64,000 nt of DNA from Paracoccaceae bacterium (GTDB lineage: Bacteria > Pseudomonadota > Alphaproteobacteria > Rhodobacterales > Rhodobacteraceae). Positions 40,565 through 62,402 of this stretch are shown here, piece after piece. The position numbers and the translations under genes were made by a program. The stretch is taken from positions 1-64,000 of the forward strand of contig CACDPP010000005.1 in NCBI GenBank assembly GCA_902554705.1, read 5' to 3'. Position 1 is the stretch's first letter. Each line of letters opens with the position of its first letter. Under the pieces are notes generated by a model. It was not told where the DNA came from. It saw nothing but the letters and a program-made list of their open reading frames with translations, and made no database searches.

Positions 40565-41394
40565 TTTATTAATATCTTTCTTAGCTCTTCAGTAACTAAA
40601 GGTTTTTGACCAAACCAAGCCTCAAAACCTGGTATTCCCTGGTGAATTAACATGCCTAAACCGTCAACCGTTCTGGATCCTCTATTTTTTGCCATTTTCA
40701 ATAAATTTGTTTCTAAAGGCGTGTAAACCAAATCTGAAACAAGAGCTTTTTTAGGTATAGCCTTTGGATTAATAGCAATAAATGTTTCATTATTCATTCC
40801 CAGTGAGGTAGTATTGATTATATTACTGCTCGAGGACGCTATTTCATTTATATTTTTCCAAGTCTCAACGATAATTTTATTGTCGTAATCTTTTTTTAGT
40901 TCTTCGGCTTTTTCAATAGTTCTGTTTAGAACTATTATTTTTTCTGAACCTTCCGATAGTAATGCTGCTATAACGGCTCTACTTGCTCCTCCTGCTCCTA
41001 ATACTACTGACGTTCCTTTTTTTGGATTCCAGTCCGGATATTTGCCTTTGATATTATTTATAAAACCGTAAGCATCTGTATTATCGGCATATATTTTATT
41101 TTCTTTAGTAAAAGTTAAAGTGTTCGCTGCGCCAATATATTGGGCTGTTCTTGAGCTTTCATCTGCTATCTCAAGAGCTGATAGCTTATAAGGTATAGTG
41201 ACGTTAACTCCAGAAAAACCCATACACACCAAAGCTCGTATAGTTTCCTCAAAACATTCTAATTCAACTTTTATTGGTATATAGTAACCATTTAATTTAT
41301 TTTGCTTTAGCCAATAGTTGTGCATTCTGGGCGATTTTGAGTGCGATATTGGGTTGCCCAAAACAGCTGCTAAAAGTGGCCTTTTCTCATCCAT
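40561..41394 (-). CDS. aroE: Shikimate dehydrogenase
   Basis: Reduces 3-dehydroshikimate to shikimate with NADPH. 277 residues. Substrate-binding motif VLGNPISHSKSPRMHNYWL (about 11-29), catalytic Lys in GVNVTIPYKLSALEIAD, the NADP loop VVLGAGGASRAVIAAL, and NTTSLGMN. Another shikimate gene, aroC, is at 61033-62136. It overlaps maf by eight bases and coaE by four. Confidence 0.95.
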   Translation of the reverse strand: MDEKRPLLAAVLGNPISHSKSPRMHNYWLKQNKLNGYYIPIKVELECFEETIRALVCMGFSGVNVTIPYKLSALEIADESSRTAQYIGAANTLTFTKENKIYADNTDAYGFINNIKGKYPDWNPKKGTSVVLGAGGASRAVIAALLSEGSEKIIVLNRTIEKAEELKKDYDNKIIVETWKNINEIASSSSNIINTTSLGMNNETFIAINPKAIPKKALVSDLVYTPLETNLLKMAKNRGSRTVDGLGMLIHQGIPGFEAWFGQKPLVTEELRKILIK

Positions 41395-41986
41395 CTATTA
41401 CACCTCTGATACATAGAAAGTTTATAATTTCTATTATTGGCATACCCAAAATAGAGAAATAGTCACCATTAATCTTTGAAAACAAACGGCAACCTTCTTC
41501 TTCTATTTTATATCCGCCTACACTGTTTTTAATACTATCCCAATTTCTATTTACATAATCAGAAATATATGTCTCACTGTTGTTTTTTAAAAAAAGGTCT
41601 GCTTTACCAACGAAACGCCAGATAGGTTGAGAATTTTCAAATATAACTGCTGCTGAATATGCACTATGTTTTTTTCCTGAAATTTTTATTAATTGCTGGA
41701 CAGCTAAATTTTTAGAAGCCGGTTTCTCTAATATAATTCCTTCAAATTCTAAGATCTGATCGCATCCCAATACCAATCTATCTTGGTTTTTTAAGGAAAC
41801 CTTACTAGCTTTTAATTCTGCCAATGTATCTGCTATGTCGCGGGGTGAATAATTTTCAACCAATAAAGAGGATTTTACAGCGTCCTCGTCTATATTTGGC
41901 TGGACTGATACGAATGATATATTCGACTTTTCTAACAGTTCTTTTCTTACTTCAGAAGAAGAAGCTAATATAAGTTCCCCGCTCAT
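41387..41986 (-). CDS. maf: Maf family nucleoside triphosphate pyrophosphatase
   Basis: 199 residues from ATG 41986; an ATG at 41998 is also in frame. The family start ELILASSSEVRKELLEKSNISF is followed by NIDEDAVKSSLLVENYSPRDIADTLAELKASKV, LVLGCDQILEFEGIILEKP and the conserved SVGGYKIEEEGCRLFSKINGDYFSILGMP. Maf proteins hydrolyse non-canonical or modified NTPs and can affect septation. It is the first gene left of the predicted replication origin, as in other alphaproteobacteria where RP001 and maf border the origin. Confidence 0.93.
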   Translation of the reverse strand: MSGELILASSSEVRKELLEKSNISFVSVQPNIDEDAVKSSLLVENYSPRDIADTLAELKASKVSLKNQDRLVLGCDQILEFEGIILEKPASKNLAVQQLIKISGKKHSAYSAAVIFENSQPIWRFVGKADLFLKNNSETYISDYVNRNWDSIKNSVGGYKIEEEGCRLFSKINGDYFSILGMPIIEIINFLCIRGVIDG

Positions 41987-42007
41987 TAATAAAACCATGT
42001 ATTATTT

Positions 42008-42016
42008 TGTGGATAA
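42008..42016 (-). promoter_or_regulatory. Perfect DnaA box
   Basis: TGTGGATAA, the exact complement of the consensus TTATCCACA, 22 bases upstream of the chosen maf start. Strongest single DnaA-site match in the predicted origin. Confidence 0.75.
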
Positions 42017-42205
42017 AAAATGTTTTGTTTCACTGTATTTGCCGACACTATATGTTTTTTTTCTATTTTTTTTTTTTCCGTTAGTTATAACAAATAACTT
42101 ACATCTTATCCTTTGTGAGGATGCACTTAAATAAAAATCCACAATTTGTTAGTTAAATTTTTTTTTCTTATTTTTTAATTACTTACAGATAATTTTTGTT
42201 TGATT

Positions 42206-42235
42206 AAAGTGTGGATTAAATTTGATCCACACTTT
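42206..42235. promoter_or_regulatory. 11-bp inverted repeat carrying two opposed near-consensus DnaA boxes
   Basis: Arms AAAGTGTGGAT and ATCCACACTTT are exact complements around an 8-base spacer. Each arm holds a one-mismatch DnaA box (TGTGGATTA at 42210-42218; TGATCCACA at 42223-42231). Since the flanking genes are divergent, a terminator function is unlikely; a paired initiator-binding site is the better reading. Confidence 0.65.
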
Positions 42236-42366
42236 TCTTCATAACTACAACATCTTCTATCTTTATATAAATATTTATTTTTATATAGAACTGAATACTT
42301 TAATTTTTCAAATGGCTAAATAAAAATGACAATGGGTATTAGTTTCCAGACAGGTTGACTCAAATT

Positions 42367-42381
42367 GGTACACAGTGTACC
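42367..42381. promoter_or_regulatory. Perfect dyad upstream of rho
   Basis: GGTACAC-A-GTGTACC, a 7-bp perfect dyad with a single central base, 62 bases before the rho start. The tight symmetry suggests a protein-binding site (operator or origin-binding factor). A second dyad, CAACAC-TGTTCT-GTGTTG, follows at 42391-42408 and could fold as a hairpin in the rho leader. Confidence 0.5.
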
Positions 42382-42390
42382 GAAATCTCA

Positions 42391-42408
42391 CAACACTGTT
42401 CTGTGTTG
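42391..42408 (+). other. Possible leader hairpin of rho mRNA
   Basis: CAACAC and GTGTTG pair around a 6-base loop, 35 bases upstream of the rho start codon. rho is autoregulated by attenuation in its leader in E. coli; whether this hairpin takes part in such control here is unknown. Confidence 0.4.
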
Positions 42409-42443
42409 ATTTTCAATAATTCTTTTTGTTAGCAGGTACCGAT

Positions 42444-43715
42444 ATGTCTTCTACTCGCTTAAATCTATCTGATTTAAAGGTTAAGAGCCCTAAAGATCTT
42501 CTTTCCATGGCAAAAGAACTAGAAATAGAAAACGCCTCAACTATGCGTAAGGGTGAAATTATGTTTCAGATTTTACGCGAAAGAGCAGACGAAGGTTGGG
42601 AGATTGCAGGAGATGGTGTTCTAGAAGTTTTACAAGACGGCTTTGGTTTTTTAAGGTCACCGGAAGCTAACTATTTACCAGGTCCAGATGATATTTATGT
42701 GTCCCCGGAAATGATCAGAAAATACTCATTGAGAACAGGTGATACGATAGAGGGATTAATAAAATCACCAGAAGATAACGAAAGGTACTTTGCCCTAATT
42801 GAAGCGCACCAAATCAATTTTCAAGATCCTGATAAAGCAAAACATAAAATAGCTTTCGATAACCTTACGCCACTATATCCTGATGAGCGTCTTAATATGG
42901 AAATAGAAGATCCAACGGTAAAAGATAAATCAGCTAGAGTTATAGATTTAGTGGCACCTATTGGTAAGGGTCAACGGTCACTTATTGTTGCACCACCGAG
43001 AACTGGTAAGACAGTTATTCTACAAAATATAGCCCACAGTATAGAGCAAAATCACCCAGAGTGTTATCTTATAGTTCTTCTTATAGATGAGAGACCAGAG
43101 GAAGTTACAGATATGCAGAGGTCAGTAAAAGGCGAGGTGATATCTTCTACTTTCGACGAGCCTGCAGCCAGGCATGTAGCAGTATCAGAAATGGTTATAG
43201 AAAAAGCGAAGCGACTTGTTGAACATAAACGGGATGTAGTTATTCTTTTGGACTCTATAACCCGGTTGGGTAGGGCTTTTAACACCGTAATACCATCATC
43301 AGGTAAAGTTTTAACAGGTGGAGTGGATGCAAATGCTCTTCAAAGACCAAAAAGGTTCTTTGGGGCTGCTCGAAATATAGAAGAAGGTGGCTCATTAACC
43401 ATCGTATCTACAGCTTTGATAGATACAGGTAGTAGAATGGATGAGGTTATTTTTGAAGAATTTAAAGGAACAGGTAACAGTGAAATCGTGTTAGACAGAA
43501 AAGTTGCCGATAAAAGGGTTTTCCCAGCTATAGATATATTGAAATCTGGTACACGAAAAGAAGACCTTCTTATAGATAAAATTGATTTACAGAAAACATT
43601 TGTTTTGAGACGTATTCTAAATCCAATGGGAACGACAGATGGGATTGAATTTCTTTTATCAAAATTAAAACAAACAAAGACAAATTCTGAGTTCTTCGAT
43701 TCTATGAATACCTGA
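42444..43715 (+). CDS. rho: Transcription termination factor Rho
   Basis: Hexameric RNA-dependent ATPase ending transcription. 423 residues from ATG 42444 (AGCAGG upstream; a TTG at 42426 is in frame but adds seven non-homologous residues). N-terminal helical domain ([23 protein letters not shown]), cold-shock RNA-binding domain ([43 protein letters not shown]), Walker A in [33 protein letters not shown] and the RNA-channel Q-loop/R-loop region [35 protein letters not shown]. First gene right of the predicted origin, leading the series rho-mnmE-mnmG-rsmG-parA-parB. Confidence 0.97.
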
Positions 43716-45023: not shown

Positions 45024-45039
45024 TGTTTCACGTGAAACA
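45024..45039. promoter_or_regulatory. parS site 1, overlapping the mnmG start
   Basis: TGTTTCACGTGAAACA, a perfect 16-bp match to the bacterial parS consensus. The GTG start codon of mnmG (45032-45034) is the right-of-centre part of the palindrome, so ParB binding and translation start share the same bases. parA-parB are encoded 2.5-4.2 kb to the right. Confidence 0.93.
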
Positions 45040-46897: not shown

Positions 46898-47508
46898 AAG
46901 ATGATATTTTAATAGATGTTTCACGTGAAACAATAGTACTCTTACAGCGGCTTGGATTGCTTGTTGAAAAGTGGAATAAGAGTATAAATCTAATCTCTAA
47001 AAAAACTGTACCTGAAATATGGAATCGTCATATTTTAGATTCAGCTCAGATTTTTTATGCTAACAACAAAAGTTTTAAAAAGTGGTTGGATATTGGATCT
47101 GGGGCAGGATTTCCTGGACTGGTTGTGGCAATTCTTGCTCAGGACAAAAATATTGGTGGTGAGACAGTCTTGGTTGAAAGCGATAAAAGAAAATGTGTTT
47201 TTCTCAGCACTGTAAAAAGGGAATTAAATCTCAATTTTTCTATTATAAACAATAGGATAGAGAGTTGCGATAGACAGCAGGCTGATGTAATATCAGCTAG
47301 GGCTTTAGCTAATTTACCTAGTCTTCTTGATTTATCATTTAATCATTTGAGTGATAAAACCACCCTTATATTTTCAAAGGGAAAGTCTTGGAAAGAAGAA
47401 TTGGTTGCTGCAGAGAAAACCTGGAACTTTAGTTGGGAAGCAGTTACCAGTATAACTGATGAAAAGTCAGTGGTTTTGAAAATAGGAGAGCTTTCGCGTG
47501 CCAACTAA
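46894..47508 (+). CDS. rsmG: 16S rRNA (guanine527-N7)-methyltransferase RsmG
   Basis: 204 residues. The SAM-binding core is [20 protein letters not shown] (about 65-84) with the preceding [13 protein letters not shown] and [17 protein letters not shown]. The N-terminal VSRET stretch is encoded by the second parS site and is a common feature of alphaproteobacterial RsmG proteins. Translationally coupled to mnmG and overlapping parA by 11 bases. Confidence 0.95.
46917..46932. promoter_or_regulatory. parS site 2, inside rsmG
   Basis: A second perfect TGTTTCACGTGAAACA. It encodes part of the RsmG N-terminus (VSRET), so the site is kept under both coding and ParB-binding constraint. Located 1.9 kb from parS site 1 and 0.6 kb before parA. 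Confidence 0.93.
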
Positions 47509-48292
47509 TAAGTCCAAAACTGCAAAAATAATTTCTGTGGCAAATCAAAAAGGGGGGGTTGGTAAAACAACTACAACTATTAACCTAGCAGCGGCATTGT
47601 CAGAATTAGAAAAGAAAGTTCTAATAATCGACTTGGATCCCCAAGGAAATGCATCCACAGGTTTGGGTGTAGGGATAGAGGATCGAGAATTATCGACATA
47701 CGAATTTTTGGTTGAGGGTGTTCCACTAGAAAAGGTCGCAATGGAAACAGAAATATCAGGTTTGAGCATTGTTCCTGCAACGATAGATTTGAGCTCCGCA
47801 GACATAGACTTGATATCAAATGAAAAAAGAAGCCACTTATTGCACGAGGCATTACGAAAAAAGCAAGAAAACAAACAAAAATATGACTATATTCTGATTG
47901 ATTGCCCACCTTCTCTAAATATTTTAACGGTTAACGCAATGGTAGCATCGCACTCTGTTTTAATACCATTACAGAGTGAGTTTTTTGCGCTCGAGGGTCT
48001 CTCACAACTTTTATTAACGGTTAAAGAAGTACGTCAAAATGCAAATGAGAATTTGCGGGTTGAAGGAATAGTTTTAACTATGTTTGATGGAAGAAACAAT
48101 CTATCTAAACAAGTAGAGGTTGATGCTAGAAGTAATCTGCGCGAGTTAGTTTTTGAAACAATTATTCCGCGAAATGTACGGGTAAGTGAAGCACCTTCGT
48201 ATTCGATGCCTGTTTTAACTTATGATCCTTCATCAAAGGGATCAAAGGCATATATGAGTTTGGCCAAAGAGTTATTAGCTAATAACTCTTGA
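47498..48292 (+). CDS. parA: Chromosome partitioning ATPase ParA
   Basis: 264 residues from GTG 47498. Deviant Walker A ISVANQKGGVGKTTTTINLAAAL (about 11-33), LIIDLDPQGNASTGLG (Walker A-prime/Asp), and DYILIDCPPSLNILTVNAM (Walker B). It drives segregation of ParB-parS complexes in the cytoplasm. The start lies inside the end of rsmG; parB follows after 13 bases with a strong ribosome site. Confidence 0.96.
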   Translation: MPTNKSKTAKIISVANQKGGVGKTTTTINLAAALSELEKKVLIIDLDPQGNASTGLGVGIEDRELSTYEFLVEGVPLEKVAMETEISGLSIVPATIDLSSADIDLISNEKRSHLLHEALRKKQENKQKYDYILIDCPPSLNILTVNAMVASHSVLIPLQSEFFALEGLSQLLLTVKEVRQNANENLRVEGIVLTMFDGRNNLSKQVEVDARSNLRELVFETIIPRNVRVSEAPSYSMPVLTYDPSSKGSKAYMSLAKELLANNS

Positions 48293-48305
48293 TAGGAGGT
48301 TTTTG

Positions 48306-49196
48306 ATGGTAGAAAAAAAAGGTAAATCAAGAGGTCTTGGACGAGGTTTGTCATCTTTGATGGGCGACTTTAATAACGAGCCTGTAAGCAGCAGTGTAAA
48401 TTCAGAAAATCAGGCATTTGAGAAACTTGTACCGGTTGAGAAAATATATCCAAACCCAAATCAGCCTAGAAAATCTTTTCAAGAAGAAAAATTAATTGAA
48501 TTAGCAAATTCGATTAAAACGAAAGGCATAGTCCAACCCTTAATAGTTAGAAAAAAGAAAGGAACAAAAGAAAGTTTTGAAATAGTTGCAGGCGAACGAA
48601 GATGGCGCGCCGCCCAAAGAGCTCAAATCCATGAGATACCAGTCATTGTAAAGGAGTTCAGTGATATCGAGGTTCTAGAAATAGCCATAATTGAAAATGT
48701 TCAAAGGGCTGATCTAAACCCAATAGAAGAGGCTCTTGGATATAAAAGTTTGATGGACAACTTTGATCACACTCAGGAAGGGCTTTCTAAAGAAATTGGA
48801 AAAAGTAGAAGCCATATAGCCAACCTATTGCGACTACTCAATCTTCCGACAGCAGTTCAAGAATTGTTGATTTCCGGACAGCTGACAGCAGGTCACGCTC
48901 GAGCTTTGGTGACATGTGACAATCCACTAGCCTTAGCAAAACAAATTATTTCACTCGGTCTTTCGGTAAGGGATGCAGAAAGGTTGGCTAAAAATGTTGA
49001 TCAGAAAAAAGTTAATAACAAAACAAAAAATAAACCCGCTGATACTATGCTTCTGGAAGCTGATCTATCAGCGGCTCTTAAAATGAAAGTATCCATTAAT
49101 CACGAAGAAGGAAAAGAAAAAGGTTTAATTTCAATATCTTATAAATCATTAGATGAACTAGATCATATTTCTGAAATACTGATAAATAGTTCCTAA
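48306..49196 (+). CDS. parB: Chromosome partitioning protein ParB
   Basis: 296 residues from ATG 48306 with AGGAGG at 6 bases. N-terminal CTPase/ParB domain with VPVEKIYPNPNQPRKSFQEEKLIELANSIKTKGIVQPLIV and the GERRWRAAQRAQ motif that binds CTP, central helix-turn-helix (LSKEIGKSRSHIANLLRLLNLP) recognising parS, QLTAGHARALV, and a C-terminal dimerisation region. Two matching parS sites lie just upstream at 45024 and 46917. Confidence 0.96.
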   Translation: MVEKKGKSRGLGRGLSSLMGDFNNEPVSSSVNSENQAFEKLVPVEKIYPNPNQPRKSFQEEKLIELANSIKTKGIVQPLIVRKKKGTKESFEIVAGERRWRAAQRAQIHEIPVIVKEFSDIEVLEIAIIENVQRADLNPIEEALGYKSLMDNFDHTQEGLSKEIGKSRSHIANLLRLLNLPTAVQELLISGQLTAGHARALVTCDNPLALAKQIISLGLSVRDAERLAKNVDQKKVNNKTKNKPADTMLLEADLSAALKMKVSINHEEGKEKGLISISYKSLDELDHISEILINSS

Positions 49197-62136: not shown

Positions 62137-62290
62137 TATCTATTACTTTCTACTATAACCATTCTGATACTGTCTCTTCTTGCGCTGGGCAAGTGTTACA
62201 CAAAAGTAAATTTTCTTCAGTTATCACAAAATAAAAAAATCCTTTATGTTTCTTGACCTTAATAAAATTTATGATAATCCATAAAGAACC

Positions 62291-62402
62291 TCGGGGAGCC
62301 AAAAATTGGCTGAGATGCGCAAGCGAACCCGTAGAACCTGAACCGGATAACGCCGGCGGAGGGAAGGATAAACTTCTTTAAGTTTGAACTTGCTCTCCCC
62401 GA
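62291..62402 (+). promoter_or_regulatory. TPP (THI-box) riboswitch upstream of thiB
   Basis: The conserved core is visible: GGCTGAGATGCGCAAGCGAA (62308-62327, the CUGAGA pyrimidine-sensing part), ACCCGTAGAACCTGAACC, then GGATAACGCCGGCGGAGGGAA (pyrophosphate-sensing part). Outer stem P1 pairs TCGGGGAG (62291-62298) with CTCCCCGA (62395-62402), leaving an unusually long segment (about 62371-62394) between the core and the closing strand. The ribosome site GAGGAG (62409-62414) follows 6 bases later, so translational control of thiB by thiamine pyrophosphate is likely. Confidence 0.95.

What the first reader, a model, noticed from the sequence alone, without database searches (positions are those of the whole stretch)
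41987..42443. Predicted replication origin between maf and rho, without hemE and RP001
The motifs (perfect DnaA box, opposed near-perfect boxes in a dyad, AT-rich unwinding stretch), divergent flanking transcription and parS/parAB 2.6-7 kb away agree. Classic alphaproteobacterial origins sit between hemE and RP001 beside maf; here rho directly follows, so the arrangement looks shortened.
Basis: partly seen in the sequence, partly recalled or inferred. Interest (0 to 1): 0.7.

Follow-up and report, generated by a model that had tools for sequence, protein, structure and literature searches.

The report
Ordinary chromosome origin between maf and rho
This short AT-rich gap is where an uncultured bacterium, probably of the family Rhodobacteraceae, most likely starts copying its chromosome; it is an ordinary origin whose usual neighbour genes were lost or moved step by step, with one conserved opening element worth testing.

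Summary
The maf-rho gap (41999-42443, 445 bp, 26% GC) is almost certainly oriC of an AT-rich uncultured genus, probably Rhodobacteraceae. The motifs are real: three DnaA boxes with at most one mismatch against 0.2 expected (P about 0.0006), including a dyad found once in the genome. Replication-strand bias, corrected for gene strand, switches within 1.6 kb of this gap in four genomes of the genus, not at dnaA 54-55 kb away. Raw skew minima lie inside the gap in three and 97 bp into rho in the window. In a one-contig relative, skew flips here and again about half a chromosome away. Two perfect parS sites lie 2.8 and 4.7 kb off.

Missing hemE and RP001 are not unusual: neither was found at this locus in 78 of 78 informative named relatives. 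Intermediates show hemE moved, the RP001-type gene lost, then hemJ lost; direct maf-rho contact recurs (4 of 78).

New detail: the best-conserved 20 bp of the named gaps is CCTACAAAAACATCATCCTT, usually 13-14 nt after a DnaA box, where a DnaA-trio would lie. The strict three-trio rule fails in the window but is met in 4 of 11 genus genomes. No strict CtrA or IHF site was found. No experiment was possible.

The parts
41387..41998 (-). maf, left boundary gene, transcribed away from the origin
   Evidence: ORF; tblastn matches in relatives; name recalled from family resemblance and gene order
41999..42300 (.). inferred oriC core (boxes, dyad, opening element, AT-rich stretch)
   Evidence: box statistics, conservation, strand-bias switch
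42008..42016 (-). perfect DnaA box TTATCCACA, 10 bp from maf
   Evidence: perfect at the same place in G000, G001, G002, G004, G005 and G015, one mismatch in G007
42105..42117 (+). CTTATCCTTTGTG: TTATCCTYTGTG is shared by the 8 genus genomes aligned across it; possible weak DnaA site
   Evidence: function inferred
42135..42143 (+). weak DnaA box AAATCCACA (two mismatches)
42206..42235 (.). dyad of opposed DnaA boxes
   Evidence: unique exact match in own genome; box spacing 13 in G000, G001, G002, G004, G005, G007, 24 in G011; in named gaps with a left box 25-26 in 35 of 55, 14 in 15, 12 in 4, 29 in 1
42210..42218 (-). left dyad box TAATCCACA
42223..42231 (+). right dyad box TGATCCACA, identical to the Caulobacter high-affinity G-box
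   Evidence: G-box sequence from PMC4285127 passages
42245..42260 (+). CTACAACATCTTCTAT, 13 nt after the right box: opening element at the DnaA-trio position; fails the strict trio rule in this genome
42261..42288 (+). AT-rich stretch, likely unwinding element
   Evidence: TATATAAAT in 7 of 8 genus rows; 88% AT at 42265-42314, highest of the 50-bp windows
42355..42360 (+). TTGACT, probable -35 of the rho promoter, marks the end of the origin part
   Evidence: TTGAC in 9 of 9 rows of the first genus alignment and 4 of 4 of the second; the consensus promoter scan did not call it
42444..43715 (+). rho, right boundary gene, transcribed away from the origin
   Evidence: ORF; 41 of 41 genomes give a match, some of these only weak distant ones
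45024..45039 (.). perfect parS TGTTTCACGTGAAACA
   Evidence: motif recalled
46917..46932 (.). second perfect parS
47498..49196 (+). parA (47498-48292) and parB (48303-49196)
   Evidence: conserved in order in relatives where the stretch reaches

Best explanation
The gap is the chromosomal replication origin. DnaA binds the box beside maf and the opposed pair at 42206-42235. From the right-hand box it probably extends over CTACAACATCTTCTAT onto one strand and opens the AT-rich stretch 42261-42288, where helicases load and forks leave in both directions. ParB on the two nearby parS sites moves the new origins apart. Shown: the motifs, their conservation, and the strand-bias switch. Inferred: DnaA binding, the opening site and the order of events. 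The arrangement arose because hemE moved and the RP001-type gene and hemJ were lost, while the origin stayed between maf and rho.
For: Strand-corrected third-position skew: best breakpoint 41337 in the window (gap 42220, r2 0.611 there against a best of 0.634); 93193 against 94780 in G001; 48978 against 49090 in G007; 41347 against 42940 in G015; 0 of 1000 permutations reach each best value. Raw skew minima 42541, 94881, 49210 and 43004. dnaA, 54-55 kb away, fits far worse: r2 0.142, 0.045 and 0.066 against 0.446, 0.592 and 0.473. G018: 19 of 20 sampled 20-kb windows fit one origin here and a terminus near 1.6 Mb; the sign changes near 3.477 Mb. Boxes. parS. Named relatives: 2.32 boxes per gap against 0.12 in shuffles, 78 gaps.
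Against: No experiment. The window's genome is a 69%-complete assembly in 79 contigs, so its own chromosome-wide skew cannot be drawn. The skew model used long non-overlapping reading frames, not annotated genes. Only three good boxes. In the more distant part of the genus boxes with at most one mismatch are sometimes few (G003 one, G014 none, though G006 three). No strict CtrA or IHF site (0.33 and 0.47 expected by chance). In G018 one of 20 coarse windows and several 5-kb windows have the unexpected sign. The bare box-N-CTAY pattern is no commoner than its control genome-wide (16 against 21 in G000).
Confidence: 0.94

Rival explanations
1. The origin is beside dnaA, as in many bacteria, and the maf-rho gap is only a promoter region.
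For: Many bacterial origins lie beside dnaA (recalled). The G018 and G033 records start beside dnaA, but that may be convention.
Against: The strand-bias switch is at maf-rho, not at dnaA, in three contigs that hold both. The skew sign change in G018 is near 3.477 Mb, about 82 kb from dnaA across the record's start.
Confidence: 0.02
2. The boxes and conserved block are regulatory sites of the divergent genes (DnaA or another factor controlling maf, hemJ or rho) near the origin, and the real origin is within a few kb.
For: Skew places the switch only to about 2 kb. The conserved block lies shortly before hemJ in most named relatives.
Against: A form of the block persists where hemJ is gone: the window's sub-lineage and 3 of the 4 named hemJ-less loci. 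It stays beside maf when the distance to rho changes. The rho promoter region is separate, at 42340-42443.
Confidence: 0.03
3. The dyad is a transcription terminator.
For: It is an inverted repeat followed by T-rich DNA.
Against: It lies between divergent genes, so no known transcript needs ending there. Its arms are DnaA boxes, and the scan calls a different stem-loop, 42391-42408, and not the dyad.
Confidence: 0.01

Closest known systems
Caulobacter crescentus Cori and Rickettsia origins (hemE - COG1806/RP001)
   Same: Origin in an AT-rich gap of similar size (404 bp in Caulobacter, 383-396 bp in Rickettsia, table seen) beside the same conserved gene block; DnaA boxes; one box identical to the Caulobacter G-box.
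   Different: hemE and the DUF299 gene do not flank it; no strict CtrA or IHF consensus site.
Rhodobacteraceae origins predicted by Ori-Finder in 101 closed genomes (PMC6699656)
   Same: Probably the same family; same criteria: skew minimum, low GC, DnaA boxes, closeness to parAB (passages seen).
   Different: The passages I saw give no flanking genes and no sub-structure, so identity of location was not checked there.
Basal unwinding system / DnaA-trio origins (Bacillus subtilis, Helicobacter pylori; PMC8287927, PMC8235120, passages)
   Same: Box, then a CTA-starting element at the commonest published spacing (13), then AT-rich DNA. Four of 11 genus genomes have three trios in frame.
   Different: One trio only in frame in the window; three in 1 of 65 named gaps. 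Runs of this length are not above shuffled T-rich sequence.

Membership tests
bacterial chromosomal origin (oriC) | replication-strand bias switches at the site | tested here: met
   four genomes; one-contig relative
bacterial chromosomal origin (oriC) | cluster of DnaA boxes above chance | tested here: met
   3 against 0.197 expected, P = 0.0006
bacterial chromosomal origin (oriC) | AT-rich unwinding stretch beside the boxes | tested here: met
   composition only; unwinding itself untested
bacterial chromosomal origin (oriC) | DnaA-dependent autonomous replication | not testable with these tools
   needs plasmid assay or marker frequency
hemE/RP001-flanked alphaproteobacterial origin (Cori type) | flanked by hemE and the DUF299 gene | tested here: not met
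   DUF299 in 0 of 16 genus genomes, hemE on other contigs where found
hemE/RP001-flanked alphaproteobacterial origin (Cori type) | CtrA sites TTAA-N7-TTAA and an IHF site | tested here: not met
   window gap only: 0 strict CtrA, 0 IHF consensus sites (0.33 and 0.47 expected by chance); loose TTWW-N7-TTWW 13 matches in T-rich DNA, uninformative
hemE/RP001-flanked alphaproteobacterial origin (Cori type) | same chromosomal neighbourhood by descent | tested here: met
   G019 keeps maf, DUF299, gap, hemE, hemJ, rho; G016 is intermediate
DnaA-trio / basal unwinding system | DnaA box 0-16 nt from the element | tested here: met
   13 nt in the window; 12-13 in 11 of 11 genus genomes and 12-14 in 4 of 7 other family members looked at; 13 or 14 in 65 of 78 named gaps
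DnaA-trio / basal unwinding system | at least three consecutive trios with a central A (read as NTN on the box strand) at the element | tested here: not met
   run of 1 in the window; run of 3 in G003, G006, G011, G014 (4 of 11 genus genomes), 0 of 4 family hits, 1 of 65 named gaps. By eye, T-rich spacer directly after the box would satisfy the published rule trivially, so the rule discriminates poorly here

The most novel reading that the evidence does not exclude
Origins of this bacterial family open through a lineage-specific element, DnaA box - 13/14 nt - CTAC(A/T)...CATCATC - T-rich DNA, that sits where DnaA-trios sit but in most members does not repeat in trio register, so DnaA would hold the opened strand through a different or partly decayed repeat; a few members of the window's genus keep a true three-trio run at the same place, as an intermediate. 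This sub-lineage kept the element while losing every classical origin-flanking gene between maf and rho.
Probability: 0.3. Interest if true: 0.5.

Novelty: new member of a known kind. Interest (0 to 1): 0.3.

Why it matters
It fixes the origin in a genus seen here only as fragmentary genomes, so read-depth growth estimates can be anchored there. Intermediates show how an alphaproteobacterial origin neighbourhood erodes while the origin stays put: looking for hemE and RP001 alone would miss such origins, while maf, rho and parS would find them. The conserved opening element is a concrete test of how general the DnaA-trio model is.

Tried and rejected
Perfect-box counting over the genome was uninformative (21 against 20 control). 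Raw skew alone is confounded by the divergent genes, so a strand-corrected version was used. Box-N13-15-CTAY as a genome-wide marker is not specific (its listing was cut, so I took no per-genome origin count from it). One search used a looser search over the whole gap: 64 of 78 gaps, 60 of them with spacing 13 or 14, but in L140, L081, L087 and L122 it picked a pair elsewhere in the gap; one search replaces it. Of the 14 gaps that one search missed, 10 show no CTAC or CTTC(A/T)A at 280-370 at all. Loss of the DUF299 gene does not track loss of its presumed target: 23 of the 30 genomes without it have a strong match to the PPDK model, many of these under its cut-off. My DUF299 query was an antisense reading frame, so the arrows there are wrong; one search gives the true strand and one search used the corrected protein. 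HemY-type protoporphyrinogen oxidase was sought in 25 genomes: only one, a class outgroup, passes the cut-off. A paper on Rhodobacter sphaeroides origins gave no flanking genes in the passages shown (PMC6315104). Supplementary origin positions of published genomes were not opened. Nine paper searches were made; none searched for the letters of the element, and I make no claim that it is absent from print.

Full report
WHAT IS THERE. The window is part of contig C5 of a 1.85-Mb, 79-contig, 69%-complete assembly. maf (41387-41998, minus) and rho (ATG 42444, plus) diverge around a 445-bp gap of 26% GC in a 39% GC window. No credible gene lies inside: apart from rho, the longest reading frames there are 45 and 46 codons. 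The dyad occurs once exactly in the genome. A perfect box by itself is not rare enough to mean anything (21 against 20 for the control).

THE DECISIVE TEST. The window's own chromosome is in pieces, so I used the window and three contigs of other genus members that span the gap. For each, third-position G/C skew per long reading frame was modelled against leading or lagging strand with a free breakpoint, which removes the effect of the divergent genes. Best breakpoints lie 0.9, 1.6, 0.1 and 1.6 kb from the gap centre, with 0 of 1000 permutations as good in each. Frames on the leading strand have skew 0.13 to 0.20 and on the lagging strand -0.08 to 0.01, on both sides of the gap. Raw cumulative minima fall between the maf and rho matches in G001, G007 and G015, and 97 bp into rho in the window. 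In G007 that interval still holds hemJ, and the minimum is at hemJ's start. dnaA lies 54-55 kb away on these three contigs and fits poorly (r2 0.045-0.142 against 0.446-0.592). In G018, a family member with a one-contig genome, 9 of 9 sampled windows from 0.06 to 1.5 Mb are positive, 9 of 9 from 1.68 to 3.12 Mb are negative, one at 3.30 Mb is weakly positive and one at 3.43 Mb is negative. The fine scan changes sign near 3.477 Mb, at maf-hemJ, with some 5-kb exceptions on both sides, including weak negative values around dnaA. About 18% of that chromosome was sampled.

PARTITION SITES. Exactly two perfect parS sites occur in six of the seven genomes searched (G000, G001, G007, G018, G024, G033); G004 has one perfect and one with a single mismatch. 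In the window they are 2.8 and 4.7 kb from the dyad, followed by parA and parB.

NEIGHBOURHOOD HISTORY. Of ten class outgroups fetched, six keep maf, DUF299 (RP001), hemE, rho in that order (G025, G033, G036, G038, G039, G040). G028 lacks hemE there, G032 lacks DUF299, G029 lacks DUF299 and shows no maf match, and in G034 none of them was found beside rho. Within the window's family, G019 keeps DUF299, hemE and hemJ; G016 has hemE elsewhere but keeps DUF299 and hemJ; G018, G020, G021 and G022 keep only hemJ; G017 and G024 have nothing recognised between the origin and rho; G023 is uninformative. DUF299 was found in 0 of 16 genus genomes and in 2 of 9 other genera of the family. Inside the genus G006, G007 and G014 keep hemJ at the locus, G010 a piece of it at a contig end, G003 only a broken remnant, and G000, G001, G002, G004, G005, G015 and (on a cut contig) G011 none; G008, G009, G012 and G013 are uninformative. 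In the named set of the 80 best Maf matches (of at least 520), two loci are cut before rho; of the other 78, 74 read maf-hemJ-rho and 4 maf-rho directly; none matched the one hemE or the one DUF299 protein used as query. So absence of hemE and RP001 is the usual state among the relatives nearest by Maf, and direct contact with rho is a recurrent last step.

SUB-STRUCTURE. Alignment of 74 named gaps shorter than 480 bp shows that the best-conserved 20 columns are CCTACAAAAACATCATCCTT (1.45 bits per column); the next blocks are T-rich DNA just after it and GGATAACTCAATAATCCACA just before it. At positions 260-380 a box with at most two mismatches is followed by CTA after 13 (47) or 14 (18) nt in 65 of 78 gaps; 13 gaps lack this. 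In the genus it is present in 11 of 11 genomes looked at (12-13 nt), including the distant G003, G006 and G014; in the rest of the family in 4 of 7, not in G016, G017 or G018. In the window the element is CTACAACATCTTCTAT at 42245-42260, exactly 13 nt after the right dyad box, then AT-rich DNA. The commonest published box-to-trio spacing is also 13 (PMC8287927, passages), and a perfect trio is read as CTA on the box strand (PMC8235120, passages). A run of three in-frame trios from that CTA is absent in the window (run of 1), present in G003, G006, G011 and G014, and found in 1 of 65 named gaps; in shuffles of the eight genus sequences tested such runs are not rare (P 0.56 to 1.00). The element remains where hemJ is lost, so it is not merely a hemJ signal; it was not found in the named hemJ-less locus L111.

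WHAT IT LACKS. No strict CtrA or IHF consensus site in the window gap. CtrA sites are also absent from some published predicted origins, such as that of Ehrlichia ruminantium and of one Wolbachia (PMC1914354, passages).

LITERATURE. Rhodobacteraceae origins have been placed by Ori-Finder in 101 genomes (PMC6699656, passages), and parAB was suggested as an anchor for alphaproteobacterial origins (PMC8116508, passages). The kind of object is therefore known; this is a new, well-supported member. The names maf, rho, mnmE and so on are recalled from family resemblance and gene order; hemE, DUF299, the HemJ family (UPF0093) and DnaA were tested by profile.

Noticed in passing
ori-rho interval of G000, G001, G002, G004, G005, G011, G015: These seven genomes have no HemJ-family match, 5 of the 7 keep ferrochelatase (all but G000 and G004), and no HemY-type enzyme passes its cut-off: a possible gap in haem synthesis, or an unknown oxidase. 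HemG was not tested and the genomes are incomplete.
   Followed up: partly
L040 (G003:C9), about 41.9-42.2 kb of that contig: A decayed hemJ remnant (UPF0093 match of 31 positions, with a stop in its frame; alignment) beside the origin, a snapshot of the loss.
   Followed up: partly
42206-42235 and relatives: The dyad's box spacing is 13 in the window and five close relatives but 24 in G011 and 25-26 in 35 of 55 named gaps with a left box, a shift of about one helical turn.
   Followed up: no
42367-42381 and 42391-42408: The rho leader holds a perfect palindrome GGTACACAGTGTACC and a small stem-loop, both partly conserved in the genus; perhaps an operator or rho autoregulation.
   Followed up: no
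62282-62381: TPP riboswitch, 74.3 bits.
   Followed up: no
for example G007, G015, G018, G024 (family f1): Where long matches exist in this family, the PPDK-like proteins match the model only from about position 78-103 on, unlike the full-length matches in 12 of 16 class relatives.
   Followed up: no
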